This document shows positions 1-9,645 of a DNA stretch of 64,000 nucleotides, piece after piece. Positions within the stretch are counted from its first letter, which is position 1. Every line of letters starts with the position of its first letter. The notes beneath the pieces are model-generated. The model did no database searches and was not told the origin of the DNA. It was given only the letters and a program-made list of their open reading frames with translations. The position numbers and the translations under genes were made by a program. Source of the stretch: Psychrobacillus sp. INOP01 (GTDB lineage: Bacteria; Bacillota; Bacilli; Bacillales_A; Planococcaceae); contig NZ_CP073315.1 of NCBI RefSeq assembly GCF_018140925.1, positions 1,550,001-1,614,000 on the forward strand, read 5' to 3'.

Positions 1-1605
1 ATTAAAAATTTCAAGTTCTGCATTCGGGTCCAATGCGGAAGTAGGTTCATCAAACACTAATATTTCTGCATCCTTTAAAAAAGCTCGAGCGATTGCTATT
101 CTTTGCCATTGGCCTCCGGATAATTCTTGGCCTCCTTGAAATTCTCTTCCTAACGTTGTGTCTATATTCTTCGATAATTGTTCCAGTATATCTAAAAGAT
201 TTACTTTTCTAAGCATCTTTTTAATAGTTTCAGTATCACTCATTTTCTCTAAATTTCCAAATGCCACATTTTCTCTTAAGGTATATGCGTATTTGATAAA
301 GTCTTGAAATACCACTGATACATTTTTTTTAAAAGCCCCTGGGTCTATATCATTAATATTAAGATTATCTAACTTTATGCTCCCTTGTGTTGGAGAATAT
401 AAACCTAACAAACAATTAATAAGAGTAGTTTTCCCCGCACCATTTTCTCCCACAATTGCTATTGTTTCTCCTTTTTTAATTTCAAAATTCAGATTTTTTA
501 ACACGTAACGTTCCTCATGAGAATATTTAAAACTCAAATTTTCTACTCTTAAAGAAGAAAATCCTTCAGAAGGGTATTGTTTCAATTTAGTATTTCTCTT
601 TTGATTATTTTCGTCATCTAAAAAGTTAAATAAATTTCTAGAATATAAAAACGATTCAAATATCCCGCCTAAGTCTTCTCCTATCCCTCCTAAAGTACTT
701 TGTATCATAATAACAGAACCCATTAGAGCAACATAATCCCCTACAGTTAAGTCCCCTTTTGAAATCTGTAACACGATAACAAAAGCAGCTGTAACTGCAG
801 TTATCTGTAGAAAGAACATAGCTAATATTCTTGTAAAACTTTCTCGCTTATATTGTTTAACAAGCAAATTTCTTACCGTTTGAAATAAACTTGCCCACTT
901 GGAAACTAAATAATGTTGTAAATTAAATATTCTTATCTCTTTTGCCGACTCTCTTTTTAACATCAAACGATACGAATAATCCATCGCTCTTGAATATTCT
1001 GTTGTGTTTACACTTAATTTATATCGTTTTTTCTTCATAATTAGTAATAATATTACCCCGGGTAAGGAGGAACATATTAAAATAATGGGCATCGACCAAT
1101 GAATCACTGTGACTAAAACCATTATTCCTAGGAGGGATAATATTTTTTGTCCAAGTGTAAAGAATTTATTAATTAGTTCTATAGGGTTCTGATTGACTGC
1201 TTCTTTTGCAAGACTAACTCGATTATACATTTCTGCACTTTCGAATTCTGACATAGGCAAATCTATTGTCTTTTCTATTAAAGCCGTTTTCAATTTAAAA
1301 TCAATGTCTTCTTTAATTAATAAGCTCAAAAAACTTGCTATTTCGTTCAATATACTGCTTACAAAAATAGAAATATACATTAGACTTATAATAAAAAAAA
1401 TATAATATATTGTTTGTACCTCTTTGTTTAAACTAGCAATACTATCTACAGATAATTTTTGTAGCATGATTTGAAGTGCTGGAAATCCTGAACTCACAAT
1501 AATAATAGTCATCCAAATTATAAAAGGACGTTTTTTATTTTTCCATATTAATTTGAATAGTCTACTGAATATTTTATAGTTAGATAATCCGAGGTTATTG
1601 GGCAA
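1..1605 (-). CDS. ABC exporter of the lasso-type RiPP cluster (TMD-NBD fusion), C-terminus outside window
   Basis: Predicted single-chain ABC exporter (lasso 'D' role) that would pump the matured peptide out. The reading frame is open from a TTG at 1605 to the window edge, giving about 535 residues; roughly 60 residues of the usual 590-600 are missing. The N-terminal half is hydrophobic with several membrane segments. The C-terminal half has Walker A GENGAGKTT, the signature ELSGGQWQR and Walker B ILVFDEPTSALD near the window start. The TTG start is chosen because GAGGTG lies about 7 nt upstream; it overlaps the end of the thioredoxin-like gene by 11 bp, implying translational coupling. It is the last visible gene of the minus-strand operon. 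The ABC exporter identity is firm; its cargo is inferred from context. Confidence 0.9.
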   Translation of the reverse strand, partial: MPNNLGLSNYKIFSRLFKLIWKNKKRPFIIWMTIIIVSSGFPALQIMLQKLSVDSIASLNKEVQTIYYIFFIISLMYISIFVSSILNEIASFLSLLIKEDIDFKLKTALIEKTIDLPMSEFESAEMYNRVSLAKEAVNQNPIELINKFFTLGQKILSLLGIMVLVTVIHWSMPIILICSSLPGVILLLIMKKKRYKLSVNTTEYSRAMDYSYRLMLKRESAKEIRIFNLQHYLVSKWASLFQTVRNLLVKQYKRESFTRILAMFFLQITAVTAAFVIVLQISKGDLTVGDYVALMGSVIMIQSTLGGIGEDLGGIFESFLYSRNLFNFLDDENNQKRNTKLKQYPSEGFSSLRVENLSFKYSHEERYVLKNLNFEIKKGETIAIVGENGAGKTTLINCLLGLYSPTQGSIKLDNLNINDIDPGAFKKNVSVVFQDFIKYAYTLRENVAFGNLEKMSDTETIKKMLRKVNLLDILEQLSKNIDTTLGREFQGGQELSGGQWQRIAIARAFLKDAEILVFDEPTSALDPNAELEIFN

Positions 1606-2134
1606 TCTCACTCACCTCGCTACTCATAAATCTCTGAAAGTTTTTAGAGTTTATGGTCGAACGCTTTATGATAAAGTTATCCTTTTGAACGACAAAAGCA
1701 AAAGGAAAGGATCTTACTTTTAGGCGTTTAACTACATTTTCCGGATGTATTAACCAATAATCAAACTTATGCTTAGATACGCTCAATAATCTTTTTGCAG
1801 ACACATCAGTGCCAATGACAAGGAATTTTATGTTCACATGCGCATTTGTACGTTTATAGTAATCCACTGTAGGAATTATTTCTCTGCAAAACTTACACTC
1901 TTCCTCAATAACAAAAAAATAGACATTGTCATTATTCTTAAAAAGAATATCTGGAAGAGGCTCCTTATTTACTAAGTTATTAGAGTTTAATATATTCGGG
2001 AATTTATTACCGGGAGGTAATCCATTAGCATCTTCAGAGACTTTCTTAACGACTTTTATGACATAGAATATTACAAGACTTTGAATAATAATAATTAGCC
2101 AAAGGGATAAGAGATGACCTGTCATCATATCCAT
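1595..2134 (-). CDS. membrane-anchored thioredoxin-like protein with CKFC active site (MauD/TlpA-like)
   Basis: Predicted thiol-disulfide oxidoreductase facing the outside of the membrane. One N-terminal transmembrane segment (about residues 9-28) anchors a thioredoxin-fold domain with the redox motif C80-K-F-C83 and a downstream SFPF segment that fits the cis-proline loop. In the MauD/MauE and BdbD/BdbC systems such a protein exchanges disulfides with an integral membrane partner. Here a MauE-like gene lies 2 bp upstream, so the two probably work as a pair. A role in forming or correcting disulfides in the six-cysteine precursor peptide is inferred. Its 179 residues are typical for anchored thioredoxin-like proteins. 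It is the only one of the two thioredoxin-like proteins in the cluster that keeps a CxxC. Confidence 0.85.
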   Translation of the reverse strand: MDMMTGHLLSLWLIIIIQSLVIFYVIKVVKKVSEDANGLPPGNKFPNILNSNNLVNKEPLPDILFKNNDNVYFFVIEEECKFCREIIPTVDYYKRTNAHVNIKFLVIGTDVSAKRLLSVSKHKFDYWLIHPENVVKRLKVRSFPFAFVVQKDNFIIKRSTINSKNFQRFMSSEVSEIAQ

Positions 2135-2136
2135 CG

Positions 2137-2670
2137 TTAAAGACCTTTTAAATATGTAAAATTTATTTTATATACAGTAAGGCAAGTATAAATCAATACA
2201 AATGAAGGTAATAATATATATATAAATATATCTATTAGATTAATTTCCGCATTAAATTGGAAAAGAGTCATATCTCCCCAAATCAAAACAATTAAACTAC
2301 ATGGTGCTAGTATTAAATTGTGTAATACTCCACCAATCCCCATTTGTGTATTTAACAATTTTCCATAGCAATTACAAGAAATATCCTTACCTGTATTAAT
2401 TGCATATAAATTTAAAAGGATGAATACAATAAATAGAAAAAAAGAAAAAGCAGCTGCCAATTTAATATATATCCCAAATATAAAACACAAACCCAAAGTT
2501 AATTCAATTACAGGGACTAAGATCCCGATTAGAATAGATAAATTTCGGCTAAATAAATTAAGTAACCTTATAACAAAAATAAACCCCTTTAGATTAAAGA
2601 GTTTAGAAACCGAAGCTAAAATTAAAATGATTCCGATCGTGACTGATGCTGAAAGAGCAAAAAACTCCAC
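2137..2670 (-). CDS. MauE/DoxX-like redox membrane protein, copy 1
   Basis: Integral membrane protein of 177 residues with about four to five hydrophobic segments. A conserved cysteine pair lies in the sequence ISCNCYGKL, the C-x-C-[FY]-type motif of MauE-family proteins. Family knowledge: MauE works with the thioredoxin-like MauD to form the many disulfides of the methylamine dehydrogenase small subunit. Start is GTG at 2670, preceded by AAGGAGG with good spacing. It sits directly between the second MauE-like gene and the CxxC thioredoxin-like gene, all on the minus strand, so co-transcription is likely. No methylamine dehydrogenase genes are present, so the substrate is presumably the RiPP (inference). 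Confidence 0.8.
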   Translation of the reverse strand: MEFFALSASVTIGIILILASVSKLFNLKGFIFVIRLLNLFSRNLSILIGILVPVIELTLGLCFIFGIYIKLAAAFSFFLFIVFILLNLYAINTGKDISCNCYGKLLNTQMGIGGVLHNLILAPCSLIVLIWGDMTLFQFNAEINLIDIFIYILLPSFVLIYTCLTVYKINFTYLKGL

Positions 2671-2710
2671 TATCTTAACCTCCTTGAAAATCTCCTTGTT
2701 TTATGAGAAA

Positions 2711-3124
2711 TTAATTATTATCTGTTAGTTTCCATGCAACCACCAAAAAGAAGAGAATGCTTACATTCATTAAGATATGTCTATACGTAATTACAGAAGG
2801 TGCATTTAACTTAAAACATCCACAGCCATTTTCAAAATGTCTTCCATAATTAGTGATCATTACGGTCAAGAATATCACCTGTAATACAATTCCCGTTATT
2901 AATCCAACCACTCTAGTATGCGGAATTAACATCCATAAACTACTCATTAGTTCAGTTGTAACAATTATAATCGTTAACTTATGGGCAACCTTTGTTGTAA
3001 ATTTATTACTATACTGCTTAACAATTCTCGAAAAACTAATTGGATTTCTAAACTTCTGTATCCCGCTTTTGTAATAAATTAAAGCAATAAAAAATACTAT
3101 AACTAGTTGTATATAACCTATCAC
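2711..3124 (-). CDS. MauE/DoxX-like redox membrane protein, copy 2
   Basis: Second MauE-like membrane protein, about 137 residues, with four predicted membrane helices and the motif GCGCFKL in the loop where copy 1 has SCNCYGKL. The frame stays open upstream to an ATG at 3178, but that would overlap the preceding gene by 47 bp. GTG at 3124 lies 7 bp after the upstream stop and has GGGAGG about 12 nt before it, so I chose GTG. It pairs by position with the degenerate thioredoxin-like gene, mirroring the copy 1/CKFC pair. Two divergent MauE copies in one RiPP operon suggest two electron-transfer steps or two partners (inference). Confidence 0.75.
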   Translation of the reverse strand: MIGYIQLVIVFFIALIYYKSGIQKFRNPISFSRIVKQYSNKFTTKVAHKLTIIIVTTELMSSLWMLIPHTRVVGLITGIVLQVIFLTVMITNYGRHFENGCGCFKLNAPSVITYRHILMNVSILFFLVVAWKLTDNN

Positions 3125-3131
3125 CTTTAGA

Positions 3132-3557
3132 CTATACCTCCCTTTTCCACTGGCTAACAAATTCCTTAACAGAATCAATATGGTTAGGATCAGACAAATT
3201 CAACTCAAAATTTCCTGATATGTTTTTTCCATTTAACATAAAGATCAGAGTTGGAAAAAATTCGATGCTTAACCTTTTCGAAATCTCGAAATTTTCAGAT
3301 GTAACCATTTCTCCTTCCATAACAATTATGTCCTCTCCAAAGCCTTTAAAAATAGAAAGTAATTTCTCTACTTTCTTATATACTTTGTTAGTTGTACTTA
3401 GATCAACACATAAAACATAGCCGGTATAGTTATTAGTTTGATCGATTAAATCTCCTTTACTTGGTAAACCTCTTACGAATTCTTCAGATTTTTGAATTTC
3501 TTTATTTATACTAATTGCAATCAAGACAGCAATGATAATTGTTATATAAAGTACCAT
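3132..3557 (-). CDS. membrane-anchored thioredoxin-fold protein lacking CxxC
   Basis: Small protein (141 residues from ATG 3557) with one N-terminal membrane helix and a thioredoxin-like C-terminal domain. The cis-proline segment FFPTLIFM is well kept. At the place of the usual CxxC there is only one cysteine (VLCVDLS), so it cannot cycle as a normal dithiol oxidoreductase. It may act as a peptide-binding chaperone, or through a single cysteine with the neighbouring MauE-like protein (inference). A longer reading from 3584 exists, but that start lies inside a strong hairpin; ATG 3557 has AGGAGA about 9 nt upstream. It is the first gene after the precursor gene and hairpin. Confidence 0.7.
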   Translation of the reverse strand: MVLYITIIIAVLIAISINKEIQKSEEFVRGLPSKGDLIDQTNNYTGYVLCVDLSTTNKVYKKVEKLLSIFKGFGEDIIVMEGEMVTSENFEISKRLSIEFFPTLIFMLNGKNISGNFELNLSDPNHIDSVKEFVSQWKREV

Positions 3558-3577
3558 TTCTCGATCTCTCCTAAACA

Positions 3578-3611
3578 CCAACACTACTCTTTATTAAAAG
3601 AGTAGTGTTGG
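3578..3611 (-). terminator. 15-bp perfect hairpin between precursor and redox/export genes (attenuator-like)
   Basis: Perfect inverted repeat: arms 3578-3592 and 3597-3611 with a 4-nt loop. It lies 77 bp beyond the precursor stop on the minus strand. Only a weak T stretch (TGTTT) follows, so it looks like a partial terminator or RNA-stabilising stem. Such stems commonly let a RiPP precursor be made in excess over the downstream enzymes. Confidence 0.75.
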
Positions 3612-3687
3612 AATATTATATTAAACTAGCATGGTTATATTTATTAGTTAGTTAATTTATTTTTTATCTATTAGAAGTAGTGCAATA

Positions 3688-3906
3688 TTAACAGTCATTA
3701 TCTGAACTACATGCGTCACTTATAGCGCTGTTACTACATTTATCTGACCAATTGCAATTTCCCGTAAGTGAATTACATTTTTTATAAGCTTGGTTAAAAT
3801 AACCAGTCTTATCTAAAAATGCATTTTCTCCTCCCCAACCACAAGTTCCTTGTATTACATCTGTAGAAGCTCCAAATTCAATAATAGTAGGTATTGCATA
3901 GTTCAT
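3688..3906 (-). CDS. lasso-type RiPP precursor, 72 aa, six cysteines in core
   Basis: Candidate precursor of the cluster. Residues 3-12 match the lasso leader recognition pattern YxxPxLxxxG (Y3, P6, I8, G12). In the family a Thr usually sits six residues after the Gly, at position -2 of the core; here it is I18, which puts cleavage after Q19 and makes G20 the first core residue. E27 is then ring residue 8, the right place for a Gly1-Glu8 macrolactam as in microcin J25. The predicted core is 53 residues, far longer than usual (about 15-26), with cysteines at 22, 44, 51, 57, 66 and 72. The start has GGGAGAG upstream. The gene lies 59 bp after the cyclase gene. The C-terminal part may be trimmed; ring and cleavage sites are inferred. 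Confidence 0.82.
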   Translation of the reverse strand: MNYAIPTIIEFGASTDVIQGTCGWGGENAFLDKTGYFNQAYKKCNSLTGNCNWSDKCSNSAISDACSSDNDC

Positions 3907-3965
3907 AATTATCTCTCCCTTTTTTATGTTTTTTATATAAACTAACCATGTAGTTAATACCCTAA

Positions 3966-5759
3966 TTAAGAAAACACTAAATCAAATTTCTTCTCAAATT
4001 TGTATAACCAGATTTCTAAAGTGAGTAGCAGCCAAATATCTTCTCTGACTCGCTTTCCTTGTCTCCAGTTATCTAATGTCTCAAGCCAATCTGATTTTTC
4101 AATAAGGCCCAATTCAGCTATTTTACACTGAGAGAAACAATCGTAAAGCTCTTTCCAATTATCTCTCAACCCTCTATATGTCAATGGTAAGTGCCCTGTT
4201 TTATCAAATCTTTCAATAATATTCTTAGGAAGGTGAGATTGTAACCCTCTTCGTACAAACATTTTGGATTGTCCATTCCCCCAACGATATTCACCGGGTA
4301 CATTGTATAAAAACTCTATTAACCTTCTATCCAAAAACGGATGATTACAGTTAATATTTACATCTCTTCCAATTTCTCTATCAGCATAAATATGACTTTT
4401 TGTTCCATTTAATTGTAAGAATATTTCCTTTTGATTTATTTTTTTTATTTTTGTTAACTGATTTAGAAGAAAGGCATTTTGTTCAACGCCAAATTCTTTT
4501 AACCAATTGGAAGATACTAATGGAGAAATTCCATATTTCCAACCAGTTTGAAAAATAGATGTCCTAGAATCCTTTGTTAATGAGAATAGTTCTCTAAAAA
4601 AGGTTTGATACTTCATCCTCTTAACTAAATCTGATAACGAAACCATAGCTCCTGTTAAAAAATGATCCCCAGCGTAACCTGTTAATATGTTGGAAGCACC
4701 GCTATCTTTTGCTTTTTGTAAAATGGATTTTGTAAACAAATAAGTAGCTGAATTCACGTTTGGTTCATATGTCCAAGGAGAATCATTAGGAAAATTTTTA
4801 AAAGTTAAATGTTCGTCAGAAACTTCATATATTGGATCAGCATTATACATGGCCATTAATGGGTCAATATACTCTCTTTCATCGCATTCTGTTAACTCAT
4901 CAAAAACACCACATACAGGGAGAATATTGGGATTTTCTAATCTTTTAACAACACTAAATATGCTAGTAGAATCTAATCCTCCACTTAACATGACAGAATT
5001 AATTTTGCTTTTTGAAGTTCTTGCTTCTACCGCCTTATATATTAATGAAACAAAATGTTCATCATAGTCTTTCAATGATGCATATTTAATTTCTTTTTCA
5101 CTATCAAATAAATTCCAATATTCGCATTCTCGTATATCTCCGTTATCTTTATTAACTTTTACATAAGTAGAACTTGGAATTCTATTCACTTCTTTATATG
5201 GAGTGATACTAGTATCTATATTGCCATTCCAAATTAAAAACTCCTTAAAGTAATCTTTATTTATATTATTTTGATTAAAATATGCTTGAAGTAGAAAAAT
5301 GTCACTTGCAAAAACTATATACTTATCTTGTTTAATCCAAAATAGACTTTTCACTCCTATTTGATCTCTGACTGCATATAATTCGTTAGATACTTCATCC
5401 CATAAAATAAATGCAAACTCTCCTATTAATTTGGAAAAACTATCTTTTCCTAAAATTCCAAAAATTCCTAACAAAACTTTCTCATCAGTATAAATTTTAT
5501 TTGGATTTAAGTATTCATTAATTAAATCTGATCTATTATCTATTCTTATATCACCAATAACCTTTAAACTTTTATAAGTATTTATTTCAAAATAATCATT
5601 ATCTACTAGAGAAGAATTTGAATATATACTCAAAATATCGACTTTTTCACTAGTTATATGATTCTTTGTATAATTTTCTTTTTCAAATATACTAATATCG
5701 TTTTGCATGGATTTAGTGTTGAAGCCATTCAGACAAAATATCCCTCTAAACAATTTCAT
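3966..5759 (-). CDS. asparagine-synthetase-like lasso cyclase (C protein)
   Basis: Predicted ATP-dependent macrolactam synthetase that activates a Glu/Asp side chain as AMP ester and closes the ring with the new N-terminal amine. At 597 residues it has an N-terminal Ntn-like domain and a C-terminal synthetase domain with the PP-loop SGGLDS near residue 260. The protein starts MKLFRG, so it lacks the nucleophilic Cys2 needed for glutaminase activity, as is usual for lasso cyclases as opposed to AsnB. It overlaps the B2 gene by 14 bp and lies directly before the precursor gene. AGGAGA precedes the ATG. Identification as lasso C rather than AsnB rests on this loss plus the B1/B2 neighbours. Confidence 0.9.
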   Translation of the reverse strand: MKLFRGIFCLNGFNTKSMQNDISIFEKENYTKNHITSEKVDILSIYSNSSLVDNDYFEINTYKSLKVIGDIRIDNRSDLINEYLNPNKIYTDEKVLLGIFGILGKDSFSKLIGEFAFILWDEVSNELYAVRDQIGVKSLFWIKQDKYIVFASDIFLLQAYFNQNNINKDYFKEFLIWNGNIDTSITPYKEVNRIPSSTYVKVNKDNGDIRECEYWNLFDSEKEIKYASLKDYDEHFVSLIYKAVEARTSKSKINSVMLSGGLDSTSIFSVVKRLENPNILPVCGVFDELTECDEREYIDPLMAMYNADPIYEVSDEHLTFKNFPNDSPWTYEPNVNSATYLFTKSILQKAKDSGASNILTGYAGDHFLTGAMVSLSDLVKRMKYQTFFRELFSLTKDSRTSIFQTGWKYGISPLVSSNWLKEFGVEQNAFLLNQLTKIKKINQKEIFLQLNGTKSHIYADREIGRDVNINCNHPFLDRRLIEFLYNVPGEYRWGNGQSKMFVRRGLQSHLPKNIIERFDKTGHLPLTYRGLRDNWKELYDCFSQCKIAELGLIEKSDWLETLDNWRQGKRVREDIWLLLTLEIWLYKFEKKFDLVFS

Positions 5760-6183
5760 AACTTTTCTCCTTTGACTTTAAAATGACCGAATATTGATTT
5801 GTTAATTCATTAGAATCATTTATATTCTCTTCAAACATCGTCAACCAAGCATGTGCAGAAAAAGGATACTTTCTAACTCCAATTACTAAATCAACAGGTA
5901 ATTTAAATTCTGTTCTAAGGTATTTATAACCCAAGAAAGACCTATGCAGACACTCCGCTTTTTTGGGGTATAAAATACAAACTCTATCAATAAAATCTAC
6001 CATTTGACTTACGTTTAAATAAGTTTCGTGAGTCAAACTCTTAACCTCTTTATTTTTTAGCAAATATAGTGATTCATATTTAATAAATACTTTATGAAAT
6101 CCCATTTTTTTTAAACTGTAATCCAAAACTATGAGTGAACAGTAAATCTTAAAAAATAAAGTAATTTTATTTAATAGAGTCAT
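5746..6183 (-). CDS. lasso peptide leader peptidase (B2, transglutaminase-like)
   Basis: Predicted cysteine protease that removes the leader once the leader is bound by B1. The protein has 145 residues, the usual size for split B2 proteins. A catalytic triad can be proposed: C78 in AECLHRS, H111 in SAHAWL and an acidic residue near D123. The segment VDLVIGVRKYPFSAHAWL is very characteristic of the family. Its first bases overlap the B1 stop as ATGA and its end overlaps the cyclase start by 14 bp, so the three are translationally coupled. The N-terminal region is hydrophobic and helical, common in B2 proteins. Confidence 0.92.
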   Translation of the reverse strand: MTLLNKITLFFKIYCSLIVLDYSLKKMGFHKVFIKYESLYLLKNKEVKSLTHETYLNVSQMVDFIDRVCILYPKKAECLHRSFLGYKYLRTEFKLPVDLVIGVRKYPFSAHAWLTMFEENINDSNELTNQYSVILKSKEKSYEIV

Positions 6184-6452
6184 TTCATTATTACCAGCCC
6201 TTTTTGTATTAATGAAGTTACAAATGATGTTACATCTTTTTTTACTTGCTCTTCCGGAATATTATACAGAGACCCTATATATCTTGATATTTCATCAAAA
6301 TTGTGATTTTCCTCCAACTTACCCCAAATGATACTCCCTACTATATCTAAACCAAAAAACTTTTCACCTGTAAAATCAAAAACCACTAATTCTCCATCTT
6401 CTTCTACAATAGTGACGCCTTCTTTTATTTTATAACTCACTTGATCCACCAA
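6180..6452 (-). CDS. PqqD-like RiPP recognition element protein (B1)
   Basis: Stand-alone PqqD-like RRE of about 90 residues that would bind the leader peptide (YxxP motif) and present it to B2 and C. The sequence shows the usual beta strands followed by helices, with FDFTGEKFFGLDIVGSIIW typical of PqqD/B1 proteins. It is the first gene of the operon and overlaps B2 by ATGA. The start is uncertain: TTG at 6452 gives the length used here, while GTG codons at 6449 and 6440 are alternatives; none has a strong ribosome binding site. Short length and position support B1. Confidence 0.88.
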   Translation of the reverse strand: MVDQVSYKIKEGVTIVEEDGELVVFDFTGEKFFGLDIVGSIIWGKLEENHNFDEISRYIGSLYNIPEEQVKKDVTSFVTSLIQKGLVIMK

Positions 6453-7634: not shown

Positions 7635-7886
7635 ACCCAGTCAGTTTATTACAATCAACATTACCTCACACGATGTTAGTTAGACTTTGATAAAACTCCG
7701 GAACTAATAATGTTCCAGACGATTAAATAAAAGAGCAATTACAAGAATAAGTAACACATATTTACATAAGACTATTGACGTTATCTAAATATTTGTAATA
7801 CAGTTAAAAAAACGGAATTTTTGTTATCCTTTAACACTAGAATTAAAATTCATTTTAGTTCAATACACCTAAAGGAGGTGATAATT

Positions 7887-9131
7887 ATGAATTTTGGAAA
7901 AGTTATCAAGTTTCATCGTGTAAAAAAAGGATTGACTCAAGAAGAGTTAGTAACCGGTTTAATCTCAATATCTTATTTATCTAAAATTGAAAATGGACTT
8001 TCAAAAGTTAGTCCTGATATAATCGAAGAGATATTCTTGAGATTAGGCATCCAGCATACTATAGTAAATGAAATTGAACTAAATGAAGAAATAAAATCAT
8101 GGTATCAATTAATAATAAATAATAACTTAGAAAAATCTAAAGAAGTTTATTATGAACTAATTAAAATCAAAAATAGCAGCTCATTTTATACAAATTCTTT
8201 GTTTAGTTTAGTATCCATTAGATATTTTTTAACATTAGGGAAATTGGATGAAGCAAAAAAAATTATTAATGAGTTATCAGGAGTAAAAAAAGAATTTTCA
8301 AATGAATTACTTTTTTACTTCTATAAATTCAAGGGTACCTTCGAATATTTAAATAACAACTTTGCGGAAGCCTATAATTCTTATAAACAGGCAGAATCTC
8401 TATTTGATTCAACTATCCTGCCCTTAGAACGTGCAGATGTTTTTTACTCTCTTGGAATGGTGACAACGCAGTTATTAAAGCCTTACCTTGCAATTTATTA
8501 TACTAAACAAGCTCTTGAATTGTTTAGAGATCAATATGTCTTACACAGATGTAGCGATTGCCATTTGCTTCTCGGCATATTATTCATACGTTCAAAAGAA
8601 TATGATGAAGCAGCCTCTCATTATCAATGGGCAAGTAAATTGGCTAAAGAAGTAAATCATCAATCTTTATTTGGTATTATTGAACATAACATAGGTTACC
8701 TTTATTATATACAAGGGCAATATACTACTGCTTTGCAATACTATGAAAGGAGCGTGAATATAAAAGGGACTGAATCCAGTAAACTTAATACGATAATCTG
8801 CATAATGAAGATATACTATAAACAAAATAATGAAGAAAAATTAATAAGTTGGTTAGCAGCAGGCGAACCATATATTTCTTATGTATCATCAAAAGACAGT
8901 GTTTTGTTCCATGAATATCAAATTTTTAGACACTTGGCACGAAAAGAATATGAGGACTTCATCTATTATACAACTAAAGTAGCTCTTCCCTTCTTCGAGA
9001 AACAGGGATCTTATCCAAATTCATCCTATTATTCTGGTCTTATAGCAGAATACTTTAAAGAAAAACGAAAATACAAACAATCCTCTTATTATTTTGAGTA
9101 TTGTAAGAAAATATTAAACAAAAAATTATAA
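7887..9131 (+). CDS. RNPP-type transcriptional regulator (HTH + TPR), NprR/PlcR-like
   Basis: Predicted peptide-sensing regulator of 414 residues. Residues 1-60 form an XRE-type helix-turn-helix (FHRVKKGLTQEELVTG..ISYLSKIENG). The rest is an all-helical array of tetratricopeptide-like repeats (about residues 70-410) such as AEAYNSYKQAESLFD and TTALQYYERSVNIKG. This domain order and length fit NprR/PlcR/Rap-like RNPP proteins that bind short imported peptides. ATG 7887 is chosen because AAAGGAGGTGATAATT lies right before it; a longer upstream frame has no such signal. A small secreted-peptide gene starts 22 bp downstream, as is usual for regulator/pheromone pairs. It may control the RiPP cluster 1.4 kb away (inference). 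Confidence 0.82.
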   Translation: MNFGKVIKFHRVKKGLTQEELVTGLISISYLSKIENGLSKVSPDIIEEIFLRLGIQHTIVNEIELNEEIKSWYQLIINNNLEKSKEVYYELIKIKNSSSFYTNSLFSLVSIRYFLTLGKLDEAKKIINELSGVKKEFSNELLFYFYKFKGTFEYLNNNFAEAYNSYKQAESLFDSTILPLERADVFYSLGMVTTQLLKPYLAIYYTKQALELFRDQYVLHRCSDCHLLLGILFIRSKEYDEAASHYQWASKLAKEVNHQSLFGIIEHNIGYLYYIQGQYTTALQYYERSVNIKGTESSKLNTIICIMKIYYKQNNEEKLISWLAAGEPYISYVSSKDSVLFHEYQIFRHLARKEYEDFIYYTTKVALPFFEKQGSYPNSSYYSGLIAEYFKEKRKYKQSSYYFEYCKKILNKKL

Positions 9132-9153
9132 AACGATAAGTGAGGGTGCAATT

Positions 9154-9333
9154 GTGAAAAAAAAATTCTATATAGTAATCTTAATAATTTCTATTTCCCC
9201 GTTATTTTCATCTCACGTCAATAATAATTTTTCTAATACAAGTAAAGAATTTTCTTCAGCATTAAAATATGAATTAGCGAGTGGGGAAGAATTTCCACCT
9301 ATACTTCAAAATAGCAACACCAACCAGTCTTAG
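9154..9333 (+). CDS. short secreted peptide, candidate signalling propeptide for the RNPP regulator
   Basis: A 59-codon frame starts with GTG 9154, has GAGGGTG about 5 nt upstream, and follows the regulator stop by 22 bp. It encodes a basic start (MKKK), a hydrophobic stretch (FYIVILIISISPLF) fitting a Sec signal peptide, and a hydrophilic tail ending FPPILQNSNTNQS. Size, secretion signal and position directly behind an RNPP regulator match NprX/PapR/Phr pheromone precursors. The active peptide cannot be deduced from sequence. A terminator-like hairpin follows at 9356. The gene is short and easily missed; function is inferred. Confidence 0.6.
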   Translation: MKKKFYIVILIISISPLFSSHVNNNFSNTSKEFSSALKYELASGEEFPPILQNSNTNQS

Positions 9334-9400: not shown

Positions 9401-9451
9401 ATAATTGGTTTAAGTGAATATCTTGGATACAAAACATGCTAATACTAGTAA

Positions 9452-9519
<68 letters not shown>

Positions 9520-9645
9520 CAAATCAAGGCCATGGTTTGGTCGCTTAGCTTTTGGGACTGGATACTGACATGCGAAAGTGATACGTGCGCCATATTTTAG
9601 AGCCACTTCTGACAAATTCTAGGGACACTAAAGACAAAAAAGAGC

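What the first reader, a model, noticed from the sequence alone, without database searches (positions are those of the whole stretch)
1..6452. Lasso-type RiPP cluster with a long six-cysteine core and two MauD/MauE-like redox pairs
Seen: B1, B2, C, precursor, two thioredoxin-fold proteins, two MauE-like proteins and an ABC exporter in one minus-strand operon. Established: B1/B2/C with YxxPxLxxxG leaders make lasso peptides; MauD/MauE supports the many-disulfide MauA subunit. Inferred: the product is a lasso-type peptide with a G20-E27 ring and a 45-residue, cysteine-rich tail that needs dedicated disulfide formation outside the cell. Known lasso peptides are usually 15-26 residues with at most two disulfides, so this would be a distinct class. 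I know of no described cluster with this gene set, but could not search.
Basis: partly seen in the sequence, partly recalled or inferred. Interest (0 to 1): 0.93.

Follow-up and report, generated by a model that had tools for sequence, protein, structure and literature searches.

The report
Giant disulfide-bonded lasso peptide gene family
This bacterial gene cluster, found in the same order in distantly related spore-formers, encodes lasso-peptide enzymes, a precursor with a predicted 53-residue six-cysteine core and its own thiol-redox-type proteins, and is predicted to make lasso-type peptides larger and richer in disulfides than those in a 2026 review, which would make the open question of how lasso disulfides form directly testable.

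Summary
The minus-strand operon encodes B1, B2, C, a 72-aa precursor, two thioredoxin-like proteins, two MauE proteins and an ABC exporter; left of the window it continues with an ABC ATPase and FtsX permease. It belongs to a family: I collected 71 precursors (Bacillota) and 14 loci with this gene set (Bacilli). G1, C3, G6 and E8 of the predicted 8-residue ring occur in 71/71. The tail is hypervariable (29% mean identity; ring plus loop 71%), yet 66 of 67 full-length cores hold an even number of cysteines (4, 6 or 8), which predicts one ring-tail and one to three tail-tail disulfides. Redox genes occur in all 18 family and sister loci examined and in none of 39 other lasso loci (one weak, distant VKOR match aside). 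A sister branch carries DsbA plus VKOR, the textbook disulfide-forming pair, in place of the second MauE/thioredoxin pair. The 2026 review consulted lists lassos up to 33 residues and two disulfides. DoxX/thioredoxin genes have a precedent in class I lasso clusters (sviE/F), where they proved dispensable for the disulfides. Nothing was expressed: ring closure, threading, tail retention, disulfides and activity are inferred.

The parts
6180..6452 (-). B1: PqqD-like leader-binding (RRE) protein, 90 aa
   Evidence: PF05402 8.3e-12; lasso_PqqD_Bac 1.4e-11, below cut-off; present in relatives
5746..6183 (-). B2: transglutaminase-like leader peptidase, 145 aa
   Evidence: PF13471 9.2e-16, NF033537 1.2e-16 above cut-off; Cys of C-x-[HQ]-[RK] in 17/17 family and sister sequences, HAW His in 17/17
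3966..5759 (-). C: asparagine-synthetase-type macrolactam cyclase, 597 aa
   Evidence: PF00733 1.7e-27; SGGLDS motif; family-1 cyclases (12 rows) form one side of a branch, SH-aLRT 99
3688..3906 (-). A: precursor, 72 aa = predicted 19-aa leader + 53-aa core with 6 Cys
   Evidence: sequence; 61 database homologues; 82% homologue keeps all six Cys
3826..3849 (-). predicted 8-residue ring GTCGWGGE (G20 to E27)
   Evidence: G1, C3, G6, E8 in 71/71 precursors; ring closure inferred
3578..3611 (-). 15-bp RNA hairpin between precursor and TRX1 genes
   Evidence: centroid -22.8 kcal/mol, MFE z -3.95, 0 of 200 shuffles as stable; role (setting precursor mRNA level) inferred
3132..3584 (-). TRX1: thioredoxin-like protein with one N-terminal hydrophobic segment and no CxxC, 150 aa (a downstream ATG may be the real start)
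   Evidence: family profile hits thioredoxin 2l6c 6.7e-5; no CxxC in 11 of 11 family-1 sequences; hydropathy
2711..3178 (-). MauE1: MauE/DoxX-type membrane protein with CxC
   Evidence: PF07291 5e-16; CxC in 18/18 homologues
2137..2670 (-). MauE2: MauE/DoxX-type membrane protein with CxC
   Evidence: PF07291 7.3e-20; CxC in 14/14 homologues
1595..2134 (-). TRX2: thioredoxin-like (ResA/MauD-like) protein with one N-terminal hydrophobic segment and CKFC
   Evidence: family profile hits ResA 4nmu 1.2e-6; CxxC in 14/14; C80, C83 and P144 invariant in 10 aligned; hydropathy
1..1611 (-). D: ABC exporter without a Pfam peptidase domain (610 aa; continues 222 bases left of the window)
   Evidence: PF00664/PF00005; full ORF L002 11779-13611; then ATPase L002 10988-11749 and FtsX permease L002 8414-10981

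Best explanation
The operon encodes a lasso-peptide pathway (B1, B2, C, exporter) whose predicted 53-residue core is likely closed into an 8-residue G1-E8 macrolactam ring and then likely oxidised outside the cell by the cluster's own MauE and thioredoxin-like proteins, giving a predicted lasso-type peptide with one ring-to-tail and two tail-to-tail disulfides. Steps: (1, inferred from homology) B1 binds the YxxPx5G leader and B2 cuts before G20. (2, inferred; the residues are invariant) C activates E27 and joins it to the G20 amine, presumably with the tail threaded while still reduced. (3, inferred) the ABC protein exports the reduced ring peptide. (4, inferred) TRX2 (CxxC) oxidises it and is re-oxidised by the CxC membrane proteins MauE1/MauE2, as VKOR re-oxidises DsbA, the pair found in the sister clusters; TRX1, which has no CxxC, would act as a holdase or docking partner. 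(5, inferred) Cys3 of the ring bonds to the tail and the other cysteines pair within the tail. (6, inferred) the ATPase/FtsX pair gives self-immunity. The product is most likely a narrow-spectrum antibacterial: conserved ring and loop as the working head, hypervariable disulfide-folded tail setting the target.
For: Conservation of the predicted ring: G1, C3, G6, E8 in 71/71; D13 69/71; T15 and G16 68/71 each. Cysteine parity: 66 of 67 full-length cores even (6: 38, 4: 25, 8: 3; one with 7), 39 of 39 representatives under 60% core identity even, 34 different spacings; C-terminal residue is Cys in 52/67. Gene order of B. thermozeamaize (G117) identical over 11 genes; in 14 family-1 loci MauE1, MauE2 and TRX2 found in 14/14 and TRX1 in 13/14. 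Control: MauE, TRX or DsbA in 0 of 39 other lasso loci; a paeninodin-like precursor was recognised in 30 of 39, 33 of the 35 such ORFs being Cys-free (the two others are discussed under Tried and rejected). Catalytic motifs kept: CxC 18/18 and 14/14, CxxC 14/14, B2 Cys and His 17/17. Sister branch: four loci with TRX1 and MauE1 in 4/4, DsbA in 4/4 and VKOR in 3/4 (one contig ends early); seven precursors, each with four core Cys counted by eye.
Against: No product has been seen. In sviceucin and MS-271 deletion of the DoxX/thioredoxin genes did not abolish the product; the delta-sviF strain kept it cell-associated, suggesting a transport role, and arcumycin lacks these genes altogether (PMC9266682 section 2). 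Leader position -2 is Ile in 68/71 rather than the Thr usual in lasso leaders (Thr rule recalled). C and B1 fall below the NCBIfam lasso cut-offs. One full-length core has seven cysteines (P0033). AlphaFold2 of the precursor is low-confidence (mean pLDDT 63.7) and says nothing on threading. ResA-like proteins, the nearest solved relatives of TRX2, are often reductants (recalled), so the direction of electron flow is not shown. TRX1 was not found in L076. The tail could be trimmed after folding.
Confidence: 0.66

Rival explanations
1. The product is a macrolactam-ringed, disulfide-rich mini-protein that is not threaded: the ring forms but the tail folds as an independent cystine-stabilised domain beside it.
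For: The tail carries 3, 5 or 7 of the 4, 6 or 8 cysteines in 66 of 67 full-length cores (all but C3), is hypervariable and is predicted as a beta-hairpin (E37-44, E51-58; ten-residue block means of pLDDT 65-79 there), like a separate domain. Conservation of a plug residue was not tested.
Against: The enzyme set is that of threaded lasso peptides, and C3 within the ring with an odd number of tail cysteines implies a ring-tail bond as in class III lassos.
Confidence: 0.2
2. The tail is a removable C-terminal follower: only a short ring-loop peptide is the final product and the disulfides matter only during folding or export.
For: Ring plus loop (positions 1-16) is 71% identical on average and the tail only 29%.
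Against: Cysteine parity and a C-terminal Cys in 52/67 (64/67 within three residues) suggest the tail is selected to its end; no extra protease gene was noticed in the mapped loci, although unmatched ORFs were not scanned for proteases.
Confidence: 0.1
3. MauE/TRX genes serve export or immunity rather than disulfide formation, as suggested for SviF.
For: Delta-sviF still made sviceucin but only in the mycelium, read as a transport role (PMC9266682 section 2).
Against: Linkage to Cys-rich precursors (18/18 family and sister loci against 0/39 controls), conserved CxC/CxxC and DsbA+VKOR in place of MauE2/TRX2 in the sister branch.
Confidence: 0.2
4. Ordinary paeninodin-type lasso cluster next to an unrelated redox operon.
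For: Lasso B2 genes are common in G328's family (85 of 148 genomes), and the precursors recognised in the sampled loci are mostly paeninodin-like.
Against: Same gene set in 14 loci, in the same order in 11; own-genome MauE only here; cyclases on a separate branch from the main control branch (SH-aLRT 99).
Confidence: 0.02

Closest known systems
Class I lasso peptides (sviceucin, siamycin I/MS-271, aborycin, humidimycin; Streptomyces)
   Same: A-B1-B2-C plus a DoxX-family membrane protein (SviE) and a CxxC thioredoxin-like protein (SviF); disulfides tie ring to tail (PMC9266682 section 2)
   Different: Those have two disulfides and a Cys as core residue 1; here cores of 50-67 aa in the full-length set, Gly1, one ring Cys at position 3, 4-8 Cys, two MauE and two thioredoxin-like genes, Bacillota hosts
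Class III (BI-32169) and class IV (pandonodin, LP2006) lasso peptides
   Same: One ring-tail bond (III) or one tail-tail bond (IV), per PMC13352647 and PMC9266682
   Different: Predicted here to be combined and multiplied (1 ring-tail plus 1-3 tail-tail); about 45 residues after the ring in the window, against pandonodin's 33 aa in total and longest-known tail of 18
Paeninodin / pseudomycoidin lasso peptides of Bacillota
   Same: Same phylum, lasso core genes plus transport (PMC8498205, passages)
   Different: Kinase/nucleotidyltransferase tailoring; paeninodin-like precursors recognised here are Cys-free in 33 of 35 ORFs and no MauE, TRX or DsbA was found in 39 of 39 sampled loci
mauE/mauD-containing candidate RiPP families of Streptomyces (decRiPPter)
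   Same: MauE, in one family also MauD, in candidate RiPP clusters (PMC7794033, passages)
   Different: Not assigned to lasso clusters in the passages read; genus Streptomyces
Sublancin 168 (glycocin) with BdbA/BdbB
   Same: Bacillus RiPP with cluster-encoded thiol-disulfide oxidoreductases (PMC5100339, passages)
   Different: Glycocin chemistry; no macrolactam enzymes are mentioned in the passages read

Membership tests
Lasso peptide biosynthetic gene cluster | B1 (RRE), B2 (transglutaminase-like protease) and C (Asn-synthetase-like) next to a precursor | tested here: met
   B2 above NCBIfam cut-off, B1 and C below theirs; same genes in 14 loci (B1/B2 of L049)
Lasso peptide biosynthetic gene cluster | Intact catalytic residues in B2 and C | tested here: met
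   B2 Cys 17/17, His 17/17; SGG[LM]DS in 17 of 21 C ORFs; the four without it are fragments (split genes or a record edge)
Lasso peptide biosynthetic gene cluster | Leader motif YxxPxLxxxG | tested here: met
   [YF]xxPx5G with fixed distance to the core in 66/71; G at -8 in 71/71; the window has Ile where the motif has Leu
Lasso peptide biosynthetic gene cluster | Thr at leader position -2 (recalled; not absolute) | tested here: not met
   Ile in 68, Val in 2, Thr in 1 of 71
Lasso peptide | N-terminal residue with Asp/Glu at core position 7-9 | tested here: met
   G1 and E8 in 71/71; cleavage site itself inferred
Lasso peptide | Isopeptide ring threaded by the tail | not testable with these tools
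   needs MS and NMR
Class I lasso peptide | Cys1 and two ring-involving disulfides | tested here: not met
   predicted core begins with Gly, ring holds one Cys
Class III/IV lasso peptide | exactly one disulfide (two core Cys) | tested here: not met
   4-8 Cys in all 67 full-length cores
Paeninodin-type lasso cluster of Bacillota | cyclase of that branch, Cys-free precursor | tested here: not met
Dsb-type oxidative folding system | CxxC thioredoxin-fold protein with a cysteine-bearing membrane partner | tested here: inconclusive
   motifs conserved, but redox direction untested

The most novel reading that the evidence does not exclude
A new kind of natural product: a lasso-headed, cystine-folded mini-protein, with a fixed macrolactam head tied by Cys3 to a hypervariable disulfide domain, that evolves like a conotoxin or defensin on a lasso scaffold. 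Its maturation uses MauE as a quinone-linked thiol oxidase that stands in for VKOR, which would give the MauE/DoxX family a function.
Probability: 0.42. Interest if true: 0.88.

Novelty: new variant of a known kind. Interest (0 to 1): 0.76.

Why it matters
A 2026 review states that the mechanism of disulfide formation in lasso peptides remains unknown and that the longest tail known has 18 residues (PMC13352647, passages). Here is a family, each readable database name of which is 'hypothetical' or 'uncharacterized' protein, with a conserved predicted ring, even cysteine numbers in 34 spacings and its own redox genes in two alternative forms. Single-gene deletions would directly test how such disulfides are made and what MauE/DoxX proteins do. 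It would also add a large, naturally diversified scaffold for stable peptides, and give genome miners a rule (ring GxCxxGxE plus even cysteines) for calling precursors that carry no family name now.

Tried and rejected
L032 (Crenothrix) from the genome-contig scan is a chance MNYAIPTI match in a long ORF that looks like a glycosyltransferase and was dropped. A viral-contig scan with the window precursor and a phage search with P0004 found no relative. L078 (G083, E 2.8e-4, stop inside) and L048 (G173, E 0.0128) have no cluster genes and were dropped. Of the 18 genomes hit, five were confirmed, G173 rejected and twelve (including G134, G336, G401) not examined; of the weak hits only G117 (and later G083) was followed up. 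Four short precursors (P0013, P0048, P0052, P0058; cores under 50 aa) were left out of the full-length parity count; with them, 60 of 63 were even. The second plasmid precursor in L049 (very like P0039) was not added. The precursor fold was too uncertain for a structure search. A phylum-wide sample of 398 genomes gave only the window's own genome, so the family is sporadic. Of 35 paeninodin-like ORFs in the controls two have one Cys: in L148 it lies upstream of the leader motif, and the L114 ORF does not look like a lasso precursor, another ORF there being Cys-free (by eye). In nine of 39 control loci no such precursor was recognised, so their cysteine content is unknown. The cyclase tree used the quick method and 31 of 39 control loci; four control rows (L141-L144) on long branches lie outside the main control branch, and the control group as a whole has support 24 only, so just the fam1 (12), fam2 (3) and 27-row control groups are relied on.
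Full report
What is there. The window is G000:C1:1550001-1614000 of a single-contig 4.30-Mb genome. Reading right to left on the minus strand, the cluster is B1 (6180-6452), B2 (5746-6183), C (3966-5759), precursor A (3688-3906), TRX1 (3132-3584), MauE1 (2711-3178), MauE2 (2137-2670), TRX2 (1595-2134) and ABC exporter D (1-1611, running 222 bases past the edge). Beyond the window follow an ABC ATPase and an FtsX-like permease (L002 10988-11749 and 8414-10981). Pfam supports B1, B2, C, both MauE proteins and D; NCBIfam supports B2, with C and B1 below its lasso cut-offs; the two thioredoxin-like proteins reach no cut-off singly. A 15-bp hairpin (3578-3611) separates the precursor from TRX1 (z -3.95); such an element could set precursor mRNA level (inferred).

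It is a family. The precursor alone found one database relative (82% identity, all six Cys kept). An alignment of three found 13 and an alignment of 13 found 61, all 61 at E 2.2e-9 or better. Readable names include Bacillus thermozeamaize, B. cereus, Priestia, Lysinibacillus macroides, Paenibacillus, Clostridium, Anaerocolumna and Alkalibaculum, as hypothetical or uncharacterized protein. In genomes the family is sporadic. In the class sample (398 genomes, 18 hit at E 0.05) G000, G117 and G328 carry this cluster, G212 and G171 the sister cluster, G173 none, and twelve weak hits were not examined. In G328's family 8 of 295 genomes hit and all eight have the cluster. In the own order 6 of 261 hit: four with this cluster (G000, G1112, G1114, G1126), one with the sister cluster (G1116), one false (G083). 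In the phylum sample 1 of 398 hit, the window's own genome. One family-1 cluster lies on a 109-kb Priestia aryabhattai plasmid and one sister cluster on a 73-kb P. megaterium plasmid, which suggests mobility; a third record labelled plasmid is 2.7 Mb (P. cellulosilyticus).

Gene set. B. thermozeamaize (G117, L033) has the identical 11-gene order. In 14 family-1 loci (window with L002, L033, L067-L076, L079, L049; L050 is the same species as L068 and is not counted) MauE1, MauE2 and TRX2 were found in 14/14, TRX1 in 13/14 (not found in L076), ABC_D in 14/14, FtsX in 13/14 and the ATPase in 11/14; L070 and L072 are cut at the stretch edge and L073 shows neither ATPase nor FtsX. In 11 loci the order is that of the window (L074 with insertions); in three (L070, L072, L079) the precursor stands before B1 and FtsX stands between MauE1 and MauE2.

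The precursor. Across 71 precursors (61 database hits, the window, G328 and eight new loci) G1, C3, G6 and E8 of the core are invariant; D13 69, K14 64, T15 68, G16 68. The leader has [YF]xxPx5G at a fixed distance in 66/71 and Ile at -2 in 68/71, the latter unlike the Thr usual in lasso leaders (recalled). Among 67 cores of at least 50 aa, 66 have an even cysteine number (6 in 38, 4 in 25, 8 in 3; P0033 has 7); 39 of 39 representatives below 60% core identity are even; 34 spacings occur; 52 of 67 end in Cys. These sequences are related, so the 39 are not fully independent. Mean pairwise identity is 0.71 for core positions 1-16, 0.41 for the leader and 0.29 for the tail. C3 is the only ring cysteine, and an even total then leaves an odd number in the tail: the simplest reading is a ring-tail disulfide plus tail-tail disulfides (inferred).

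The redox genes. CxC is kept in MauE1 18/18 and MauE2 14/14, and CxxC in TRX2 14/14; TRX1 lacks CxxC in 12 of 14, the two exceptions belonging to the sister branch. The TRX1 family profile matches thioredoxins of known structure (best 6.7e-5) and the TRX2 profile matches ResA and similar oxidoreductases (best 6.8e-7 for 5um7; ResA 1.2e-6); a profile comparison of the two is weak (probability 55%). In the window both TRX proteins have a single N-terminal hydrophobic segment and both MauE proteins several, by a hydropathy scan. MauE (PF07291) matches twice in the own genome, both here; in ten relatives 17 of 21 matches lie in these clusters.

Control. In 148 genomes of G328's family, 85 have a lasso B2, with 102 matches in all, four of them in this family's clusters (counted by eye). 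I fetched stretches around 39 of the 98 others. None has MauE, TRX or DsbA at E 0.01; one weak VKOR match (0.0085) lies about 8.6 kb from the lasso genes in L143. In 30 of 39 a paeninodin-like precursor was recognised, and 33 of 35 such ORFs have no Cys (the other two are explained under Tried and rejected); in nine none was recognised. All 18 loci of the family and its sister have redox genes. The cyclases of the family form one branch (12 rows, SH-aLRT 99), apart from the main control branch (27 rows, 99); 31 of 39 controls gave a cyclase row (quick method).

Sister branch. Four loci (P. megaterium plasmid L051, L046, L047, L077) have B1-B2-C-TRX1-MauE1-ABC followed by DsbA (4/4) and VKOR (3/4; L047's contig ends) and one or two precursors with a ring of the form GCxGxGxE and four core Cys (seven sequences, by eye). 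DsbA plus VKOR is an established oxidative pair (abstract of PMC11208910 in the listing), so its presence where family 1 has MauE2/TRX2 is my main argument that MauE2/TRX2 oxidise. It is an inference from gene content.

Mechanism. B1/B2 would remove the leader, C would close G1-E8, D would export, and TRX2/MauE would oxidise outside the cell; the ATPase/FtsX pair would give immunity. Only the genes, motifs and conservation are shown. Against it: in sviceucin and MS-271 the DoxX/thioredoxin genes are dispensable for the product, and class I arcumycin lacks them (PMC9266682, section 2 read). Those peptides are 21-residue class I lassos or nearly so (length recalled); a 53-residue six-cysteine core has many more ways to mispair.

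Known or new. Literature seen: PMC9266682 (section 2 and passages), PMC13352647, PMC8498205, PMC5100339 and PMC7794033 (passages), plus search listings. None of the listings or passages I read describes such precursors or lasso clusters with two MauE genes or with DsbA/VKOR; most subscription papers and all bioRxiv-only preprints are outside that library. PMC5100339 counts 48 putative lasso clusters in Bacillales, and the passages seen give no sequences, so some of these loci may have been counted before. I file it as a new variant of a known kind: lasso biosynthetic genes are met, classes I, III and IV are not, and topology is untested.

Noticed in passing
window 7821-9333 (+): Divergent from the cluster: an HTH + TPR regulator (436 aa; HTH_3 and TPR_12) followed by a 59-aa ORF with a signal-peptide-like start (9154-9333), as in RNPP/PlcR-type quorum-sensing pairs (recalled); it may control the cluster.
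   Followed up: partly
window 9413-9600: Long trinucleotide repeat (poly-V, poly-S, poly-T frames) just after the putative signal peptide gene.
   Followed up: no
L074 4993-14651: The Lysinibacillus-type cluster is interrupted by several transposase-like genes; the cyclase gene is in two pieces. L047's cyclase also reads in three pieces. Described only.
   Followed up: no
L051 11118-15288: Sister cluster on a P. megaterium plasmid lies beside a two-component system and an agrB/cyclic-lactone autoinducer pair.
   Followed up: no
L002 6661-7796: LysE-type exporter and Lrp-type regulator genes (by eye from the translation) left of the cluster.
   Followed up: no
G919:C10, G919:C17, G888:C6, G212:C31: MauE genes outside these clusters in three genomes (4 of 21 matches); possibly further peptide clusters.
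   Followed up: no
L069 9898-10152 and L071 9855-10109: Two precursors (a third is P0057) with eight core cysteines, predicting four disulfides.
   Followed up: partly
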